From positions 1 to 34,005 of the forward strand of contig JAUVCD010000007.1 in the NCBI GenBank assembly GCA_030590865.1: a stretch of 34,005 nt of DNA. The letters run 5' to 3'. The translations under genes were made by a program, and so were the position numbers. Under the pieces are notes generated by a model that did not search any database, was not told the DNA's origin, and saw only the letters and a program-made list of their open reading frames with translations. Shown piece after piece: positions 32,531 to 34,005 of this stretch (the stretch's first letter is position 1; the number at the start of each line of letters is the position of its first letter). Origin of the DNA: Myxococcales bacterium (GTDB lineage Bacteria > Myxococcota_A > Polyangia > Polyangiales > Polyangiaceae).

Positions 32531-33734
32531 TCAGGGTCCGACCGGCCCGACCTCTTCGAAGGTGTCCGGCGGTTCGGGCTCGACTGCCGGACTGGTACCG
32601 GTGAGCAGGGGCGGTGGCTGCAGGGCCGAGCTCAGCACTTTGCAGACGTCCTCGTGCTCCTCGCACCCGCAGCCGTTGCCACCACGCCCAAGAGGCTCCC
32701 ATGCCGCCGGCGATTGCCATGCCTCTTCATAGGCAGCACACGGTCTGGCTGATCGTCGTAGGGGTGGGCAGCGTCGTCCCACCGGCGGCCTGGCAGCTAC
32801 CTGGACTAGTAATCTCTGCCCGGCCTGACTGGGGCGGTGGGTTGCTGATGTCGTCGCAAGCGACGTCGCTGCTAGGCATGAAGTAGCTCCCTGCGCAGAC
32901 CGCATCGTTGAAGTGCAGGTTCAGGCGGCAGCTCACCCCTTGGGCCGAAGCGCAGCTGCAGGGATTGCAGAAATCGTCGCTGGCATAGACCTTGTGGGAT
33001 TCGGAAAACCCGTCAGGACACGAGACGTCTCCGGCCCGGGCCACGCAGAGCTTCTCATCCCAGCCGTTTCCGGCGACGGGCAAGCAGCCATCACTACAGC
33101 TCGAAGGGGCCGGGCACAGCGCTACAAATGTGCCGTCGGCCACTGATGGCTTGCCCACCGGGGTGCAGGAGCCGCTCGGTTGGAAGGTGAGGTTCAGCGC
33201 CACCCAGCTCGTTGGGTTGGAGATGGCTTTGCAGCTCTGAGTGTCGAACTCGAGGTCGAGCCCGGAATTAGCGCAGGGGTTGTTGCTGAAGAATTGGGCG
33301 GACACCGGGCAGCTAGCGTTGGAGGTGGGGCACTCGCAGAGGGGGCACTCGACCCCGCTGGTGTCAGTGCTTCCCTCTTGGATGGCACTGACACATGACG
33401 GCGCAGCGCTCTGGGTACCGGTATAGAGCTGCACCCTGGTGTCCCAGCCGGAAAGATCGGGCAAACCGGGGCAGTCGCCATCGTCTCGGAAGCAGCGGCA
33501 GCCGTCGGTGGTGGTGCTGCATGGATCGTCGTTGCCACCTAGGCTGGTCGTCGTGCCACTGCTCGTCGAGCCACCGACACCGGAGGTGGACGAGGTGGTG
33601 TCGTAGCTCAGATCGTCGACACCGAAGAGGGTGTTGCATCCCAGCGACCCACTCCAGGCAATGGCGACGGCTGCGCCACCGACGGTCAGCCGGCGGCATC
33701 GCGGTGACCGGATGAGCCGCAGCTGGGGGGGCAT
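32531..33734 (-). pseudogene. Cys-rich secreted lipoprotein with apparent frameshift near 32745
   Basis: ORF 33734-32727 starts MPPQLRLIRSPRCRRLTVGGAAVAIAWSGSLGCNTLFG (lipobox) and ends TVCCL*; the overlapping frame continues protein-like as CAAYEEAWQSPAAWEPLGRGGNGCGCEEHEDVCKVLSSALQ...VGP* to 32531. Confidence 0.55.
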
Positions 33735-33784: not shown

Positions 33785-33818
33785 GCTCTCGGCTCTCGGC
33801 TCTCGGCTCTCGGCTCTC
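33785..33818. repeat. Heptanucleotide tandem repeat gctctcg, ~4.9 copies
   Basis: gctctcg x4 at 33785-33812, then gctctc. Confidence 0.9.
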
Positions 33819-33877
33819 TCGATCCTCGTTTCACTCGAATCTCGGGACAGCGCAGGTCGTGCTCACTGGAGCTTCGG

Positions 33878-33967
33878 GGCCTCCATCGGTCGCCGGGTTT
33901 GCTGCGAGGGCGACTGAACGCTGGGGGCGAGGTCGCCTTCTCGCAAACCCGGCGACCGATGGAGGCC
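33878..33967. repeat. 25-bp perfect inverted repeat with 40-nt spacer
   Basis: ggcctccatcggtcgccgggtttgc (33878-33902) versus gcaaacccggcgaccgatggaggcc (33943-33967); further inner pairing ggcgac (33909-33914)/gtcgcc (33932-33937). Confidence 0.95.
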
Positions 33968-33969
33968 AG

Positions 33970-34005
33970 ATGAAGCACGCATTCGATTACGAAAAGCTCG
34001 ATTGT
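33970..34005 (+). CDS. Start of probable four-helix-bundle (23S-IVS/S23-type) protein, truncated by window end
   Basis: ATG 33970 gives MKHAFDYEKLDC; ggagg SD at 33961-33965. The short N-terminus resembles F-[DE]-[YH]-E-[KR]-L-[DE]-V-Y starts of this family. Confidence 0.45.
   Translation, partial: MKHAFDYEKLDC

What the first reader, a model, noticed from the sequence alone, without database searches (positions are those of the whole stretch)
33785..34005. Repeat plus long hairpin plus four-helix-bundle gene: candidate IVS-like mobile or regulatory element
Seen: a gctctcg heptanucleotide array, then a 25-bp perfect inverted repeat (33878-33902/33943-33967), then ATG 33970 encoding MKHAFDYEKLDC. 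Established: 23S rRNA intervening sequences are long-stem elements that can carry a small four-helix-bundle (S23-type) protein, and the related Avd protein is a DGR accessory. Inference: this may be a free-standing element with the same parts, located outside rRNA next to lipoprotein genes.
Basis: partly seen in the sequence, partly recalled or inferred. Interest (0 to 1): 0.78.

Follow-up and report, generated by a model that had tools for sequence, protein, structure and literature searches.

The report
Free-standing hairpin elements carrying S23-like genes
The end of this window is one of many scattered copies of a small repeated DNA element (a short tandem array, a perfect hairpin and a gene for a four-helix protein otherwise known from 23S rRNA insertions), and the same kit recurs outside rRNA in many bacteria, which suggests an overlooked kind of selfish DNA.

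Summary
The window ends (contig end) inside a repeated element: a GCTCTCG heptamer array (33785-33818), a perfect 25-bp inverted repeat (33878-33902/33943-33967), and the start of a gene that intact copies elsewhere in the genome show to be a 107-aa TIGR02436/PF05635 four-helix-bundle (S23/IVP) protein. At least 18 other loci in the same MAG carry it. The gene is under strong purifying selection between copies (dN/dS 0.08), and many copies run into a second, convergent S23 gene with its own hairpin.

The plan is general. In a genus of the same order, twin convergent S23 genes, each behind a covarying hairpin that holds its Shine-Dalgarno sequence, sit inside hexanucleotide arrays; related species have orthologous sites without the element. 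Across the order and in other phyla, S23 genes outside rRNA are strongly enriched for upstream hairpins, flanking hexamer arrays and inverted flanks. RT and Y1 transposase genes do not track with the elements.

It is not a literal 23S IVS: it is outside rRNA, and here the stem precedes the gene. Best reading: an undescribed class of IVS-like, probably selfish elements that propagate with their own S23 proteins. Mobility and mechanism are inferred, not shown. I found no description in the open literature searched.

The parts
33785..33818 (+). Heptanucleotide array (GCTCTCG)4.9; other copies have degenerate CTCGNNN arrays of variable length here
33819..33877 (+). Leader conserved between copies (CTCGATCCTCGTTTCACTCGAATCTCGGGACAGCGCAGGTCGTGCTCACTGGAGCTTCGG)
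33878..33902 (+). 5' arm of the perfect 25-bp hairpin
33903..33942 (+). 40-nt hairpin loop, itself mostly self-complementary in the predicted fold
33943..33967 (+). 3' arm of the hairpin; contains the candidate Shine-Dalgarno GGAGG at 33961-33965
   Evidence: the Shine-Dalgarno reading is by inspection
33970..34005 (+). Start of S23-like gene A (MKHAFDYEKLDC...), cut by the contig end; intact copies encode 107 aa

Best explanation
It is one copy of a small, dispersed, probably selfish element of an undescribed class: 'free-standing IVS-like' or 'S23 hairpin' elements. The full-length form in this genome is array - hairpin A - gene A -> <- gene B - hairpin B, with short inverted ends in some copies; both genes encode basic S23/IVP four-helix-bundle proteins. 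Proposed working. (1) The S23 proteins, made from the element, bind their own hairpin or array as oligomers and help to copy or insert the element (inferred). (2) Each hairpin lies at the outer side of an inward-facing gene with the ribosome-binding site in its 3' arm, so a transcript reading in from outside folds the site away; only transcripts starting inside the hairpin would be translated, a lock against outside expression as is known for insertion sequences such as IS10 (sequence-based inference; IS10 comparison from my own knowledge). (3) Copying uses host replication or recombination, because neither a reverse transcriptase nor a Y1 transposase tracks with the elements; the hexa/heptamer arrays are either landing sites or terminal repeats left by the element (open). 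Shown: multi-copy, S23 fold, purifying selection, covarying hairpins, array association, element-free orthologous sites. Not shown: transposition, RNA or DNA binding, translation control.
For: Dispersed copies: 18 other loci in the same genome; a same-genus genome has 8 copies about 60% identical in protein. dN/dS between copies of gene A 0.078 at mean dS 0.41; in another genus 0.06-0.14 for both genes. S23 fold: pLDDT 94.9, best PDB matches 2gsc (Xcc0516) and 2rld, with Avd lower down. Second convergent S23 gene with its own hairpin. Genome G028: seven near-identical twin elements; G037 and G109 lack the element at the orthologous site next to the cinA-like gene, and G109 has only an array there. 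Hairpins covary: 8 of 18 and 12 of 28 pairs with changes on both sides. Upstream hairpin in 27/69 S23 genes against 0/189 control windows; hexamer array upstream of 26/60 against 2/192; inverted flanks in 44/95 against 5/276. RT found in 2 of 19 genomes of that genus, Y1 absent from the two richest.
Against: No catalytic gene is found in the element, so the mobility step has no identified enzyme. No clear target-site duplication. Element-free sites were shown for the sister family in another genus, not for the window family. Hairpin covariation has almost no one-sided G-U intermediates (3 G-T against 19 A-C mismatches), so it could come from DNA-level palindrome correction rather than selection on an RNA. 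The window genome is a fragmented MAG (7% contamination, 1123 contigs) whose contigs break at these repeats. The tests across loci use related copies, so their p-values overstate independence.
Confidence: 0.66

Rival explanations
1. The tandem arrays are the mobile or unstable part and the S23 cassette is a passenger: hexamer/heptamer arrays scattered over the genome let RecA-type recombination or gene conversion carry whatever lies between two arrays to other arrays.
For: In G028 and its genus nearly every twin element is flanked on both sides by CTGNCN arrays in the same orientation. Array hits are far more numerous than elements, e.g. 750 overlapping pattern hits in G028, and exist in genomes without S23 genes. 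G109 has an array without element at the G028 site.
Against: Five more distant species have no array at that site (read by inspection), so the array is not an old landing pad there. S23 genes are under strong purifying selection between copies, unlike passengers. Array number and S23 number correlate only weakly (rho 0.45, p 0.05).
Confidence: 0.15
2. The copies are a host-beneficial, domesticated module: S23 proteins bind hairpins and arrays as nucleoid- or RNA-organising factors, and the copies spread because they help the host.
For: Purifying selection and wide occurrence: 89 of 145 genomes of the order.
Against: Patchy presence, 0 to 30 or more copies between relatives, and none in some near-complete members of the same genus; decayed copies that have lost hairpin and start codon; element-free orthologous sites.
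Confidence: 0.12
3. A 23S rRNA intervening sequence in the strict sense, or a displaced copy of one, excised by RNase III.
For: Same protein family; a long perfect stem; the Coxiella IVS also has tandem heptamers directly before its S23p gene (PMC4990558); in other genomes inverted flanks enclose the S23 gene as in an IVS.
Against: No rRNA at gathering score in 20 loci; in the window family the stem lies before the gene and does not enclose it; two convergent genes per element.
Confidence: 0.03
4. A retroelement or DGR-like system moved by a reverse transcriptase acting with the Avd-like protein.
For: Avd is a structural relative and works with a reverse transcriptase.
Against: RVT_1 found in only 2 of 19 genomes of the G028 genus, absent from genomes with 8-15 S23 genes; Avd model NF033474 not reached; no RT in the elements read.
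Confidence: 0.04

Closest known systems
23S rRNA intervening sequences (IVS) with S23p ORF, e.g. Coxiella burnetii, Leptospira
   Same: S23/IVP gene, long inverted-repeat stem, short tandem repeats at the gene start (heptamers in Coxiella, PMC4990558), small size, presumed selfish.
   Different: Not in rRNA; many copies per genome; two convergent genes; hairpin upstream of each gene instead of enclosing it (enclosing inverted arrays do occur in other free-standing families).
Avd of diversity-generating retroelements
   Same: Four-helix-bundle fold; weak structural match to 4dwl and 8ub7.
   Different: No reverse transcriptase in the element; Avd family model not reached.
Insertion sequences with ribosome-binding sites locked in hairpins (IS10-like protection)
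   Same: Hairpin at the outer edge of inward-facing genes, ribosome-binding site in the inner arm; short inverted ends in some families.
   Different: No transposase; two S23 genes instead.
REPIN/RAYT systems
   Same: Dispersed hairpins tied to a gene family.
   Different: No Y1 transposase in the two richest genomes; the gene is inside the element.

Membership tests
S23 / 23S_rRNA_IVP protein family (PF05635, TIGR02436) | Profile score over the curated cut-off | tested here: met
   Gene A 37.6 bits (cut-off 33.8) and 40.7 (cut-off 24); gene B 58.7 and 57
S23 / 23S_rRNA_IVP protein family (PF05635, TIGR02436) | Four-helix-bundle fold | tested here: met
   pLDDT 94.9; top PDB hit 2gsc, TM up to 0.82
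23S rRNA intervening sequence | Located inside a 23S rRNA gene | tested here: not met
   No Rfam match at gathering score in 20 loci
23S rRNA intervening sequence | Terminal inverted repeats enclose the ORF | tested here: not met
   In the window family the stem precedes the gene; in other free-standing S23 loci inverted flanks do enclose it (44 of 95)
23S rRNA intervening sequence | Excised from the transcript by RNase III | not testable with these tools
   needs RNA
Diversity-generating retroelement | Reverse transcriptase present | tested here: not met
   PF00078 in 2 of 19 genomes of the G028 genus although 15 carry S23 genes
Diversity-generating retroelement | Avd equivalog model reached | tested here: not met
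   NF033474 at most 12.3 bits against a cut-off of 80
DNA transposon / insertion sequence | Encodes or depends on a transposase | tested here: not met
   Only PF05635 genes seen in the elements; Y1 transposase absent from G028 and G115. Other transposase families in trans were not tested.
DNA transposon / insertion sequence | Terminal inverted repeats | tested here: inconclusive
   GACTTGGTNATCG outside both hairpins in many g27 elements; CARGATAGTTGTCG at ends of some G000 copies, 23 sites in that genome and none in G001, G002 or G028; not seen beside the window copy
DNA transposon / insertion sequence | Target-site duplication and element-free sites | tested here: inconclusive
   Element-free orthologous sites found in G037 and G109; no clear duplication because arrays flank the element
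REPIN/RAYT | Y1 (RAYT) transposase in the genome | tested here: not met
   No PF01797 match in G028 or G115

The most novel reading that the evidence does not exclude
A categorically new kind of mobile element, found in several bacterial phyla, in which one or two S23-like four-helix-bundle proteins plus DNA hairpins and short tandem arrays are the whole transposition kit, working through host replication or recombination; the rRNA IVS would then be the special case that landed in a 23S gene.
Probability: 0.35. Interest if true: 0.9.

Novelty: new variant of a known kind. Interest (0 to 1): 0.74.

Why it matters
S23/IVP proteins have been known for decades with no function and are annotated in many genomes as 'four helix bundle protein'. 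This finding gives them a recurrent genomic context (hairpin, hexamer/heptamer array, often a convergent twin, many copies, purifying selection) that makes their role testable. It suggests that rRNA intervening sequences belong to a larger class of free-standing elements, and it offers a possible explanation for many short tandem arrays in Myxococcota genomes. If the elements move without any known transposase or reverse transcriptase, the mechanism would be new.

Tried and rejected
Rfam: no family at gathering score in these loci (weak chance matches). Reverse transcriptase and Y1 transposase as partners in trans: rejected for the G028 genus. Defence (PADLOC) and phage (PHROGs) families: no match for gene A or B of the window genome. 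Viral contigs: no relative. A first hairpin scan ignored strand and was discarded, then redone. Arrays as old, pre-existing landing pads: not supported at the one site with outgroups.

Full report
What is in the window. The window is contig C684 of a 9.5-Mb, 1123-contig genome, and its last base is the contig end. The last 220 bases hold (GCTCTCG)4.9 at 33785-33818, a conserved leader, a perfect 25-bp inverted repeat with a 40-nt loop (RNA fold -88.5 kcal/mol, z -10.2) and ATG 33970. Apart from a single 14-mer pair, no comparable inverted repeat occurs elsewhere in the window. By inspection the hairpin's 3' arm contains GGAGG, 4 nt before the start codon. Upstream lies an ORF on the other strand (32727-33734), so the element sits about 50 bp from its start; there is no rRNA in the copies examined.

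Copies in the same genome. DNA search found 18 other loci matching at least 150 nt of the query at 89-98% identity and many partial ones, often at contig ends, as expected of repeats that break a short-read assembly. A complete copy of this half (L030, contig C409) shows array, leader, hairpin and a 107-aa ORF. Gene A is a PF05635/TIGR02436 protein; its model (pLDDT 94.9) matches Xcc0516 (2gsc) and BT_0352 (2rld) best, with Avd further down. Between seven intact copies dN/dS is 0.078 with mean dS 0.41, so copies diverged while the protein stayed constrained.

The full element has two genes. Many copies continue past gene A into a convergent second S23 gene B, often truncated; complete B genes (L099, L100) are preceded by their own hairpin, whose 3' arm covers B's start codon in L099. 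Some ends carry an inverted CARGATAGTTGTCG motif, found 23 times in this genome and not in G001, G002 or G028. Other S23 families in the same genome have the same convergent layout. Several copies of gene A have lost the hairpin and start codon, by inspection at short microhomologies such as TCGCCG and TTCG, as expected if the palindrome forms a hairpin in DNA.

Relatives and element-free sites. In the same order PF05635 occurs in 89 of 145 sampled genomes, from none to about 30 copies. In G028, a 4.2-Mb well-assembled genome of another family, seven near-identical twin elements lie in CTGNCN hexamer arrays of the same orientation. In the genus nearly all copies show hexamer array, hairpin with AAGGAG or AAAGGA in its inner arm, gene A, gene B, hairpin, array, and many have a GACTTGGTNATCG end motif outside the hairpins (lost on the G028 A side). 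At one G028 site, beside a cinA-like gene (named by eye), G037 (about 89% identical flanks) has 13 bp where G028 has about 1160 bp, and G109 has a short hexamer array but no genes; more distant species with the same neighbours have no array. At a second site G037 has a scar with the outer B-side motif. So the element is absent from orthologous sites in relatives, and arrays can stand alone there; whether the array came first or is a remnant is open.

Hairpins. In 18 gene-A hairpins of that genus 8 of 18 consensus pairs show changes on both sides that keep the pair, and 12 of 28 in 16 gene-B hairpins. One-sided intermediates are nearly absent, and stem mismatches are 3 G-T against 19 A-C on the gene strand. 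This argues for constraint or correction at DNA level (cruciform, or template switching in palindromes) at least as much as for an RNA on the sense strand. Around 69 S23 genes, a stem score of 14 or more within 240 nt upstream occurs in 27, against 0 of 189 control windows.

Arrays and inverted flanks. Arrays of period 5 to 9, nearly always 6, lie within 450 nt upstream of 26 of 60 S23 genes and downstream of 16 of 58, against 2 of 192 control windows and 2 of 55 distant windows of the same loci; the units differ between genomes. Outside Myxococcota the association is weaker but present: 8 of 45 upstream against 1 of 45. Complementary inverted flanks score 25 or more around 44 of 95 S23 genes, against 5 of 276 mismatched pairs and 0 of 98 distant pairs. 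In Desulfobacter latus, for example, hexamer arrays in inverted orientation enclose a single S23 gene, which is IVS topology outside rRNA. Copies are related, so the Fisher values are only indicative. The Coxiella rRNA IVS has two to three tandem heptamers right before its S23p gene (PMC4990558), an independent parallel.

Partners. Reverse transcriptase is found in only 2 of 19 genomes of the G028 genus and Y1 transposase in neither of the two richest. Other transposases in trans were not tested. No PADLOC match, no viral-contig relative, and no PHROGs match for the window genome's own genes.

Interpretation. Shown: a multi-copy element with an S23 gene under selection, a hairpin and an array, and a widespread plan of the same parts outside rRNA. 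Inferred: that it is mobile and selfish, that the S23 proteins act in its spread, that the hairpin locks translation from outside transcripts, and that host replication or recombination does the copying. Not a member of the 23S IVS class by location and stem position; it resembles an IVS in parts and probably in lifestyle.

Noticed in passing
L188 (G078:C2) and related loci of G036, G052, G143, G135: Hexanucleotide arrays of many different units (GATTCC, TCCGAC, GTGAGC, GCGTCA, GAGCAG) near S23 genes in large Myxococcota genomes; in G078 five S23 genes lie in tandem about 620 bp apart (C2:1856842-1859602).
   Followed up: partly
L290 (G143:C1:1590700-1593300): Divergent pair of S23 genes, each with a long interrupted hairpin at its start and a hexamer array behind its stop: the same parts in the opposite arrangement.
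   Followed up: partly
L099 about 400-560, L019, L030 and other G000 copies: A GC-rich interrupted palindrome (CCCCTTCCCCCACGTGC ... GCACGTGGGGGAAGGGG) and a second module (CCTTGATCGGTGGTCGGTAGGGATACCTCTTACTGTCG) recur beside the elements, giving mosaic repeats.
   Followed up: no
L101 (G000:C471): An S23 gene with its own hairpin lies directly next to an IS-like transposase gene (identified by eye).
   Followed up: no
L223 (G037) opposite L191: Scar with the outer B-side motif and an unrelated repeat (CCGGTTGACGCAGA) at an orthologous site; that repeat also follows several G028 elements.
   Followed up: no
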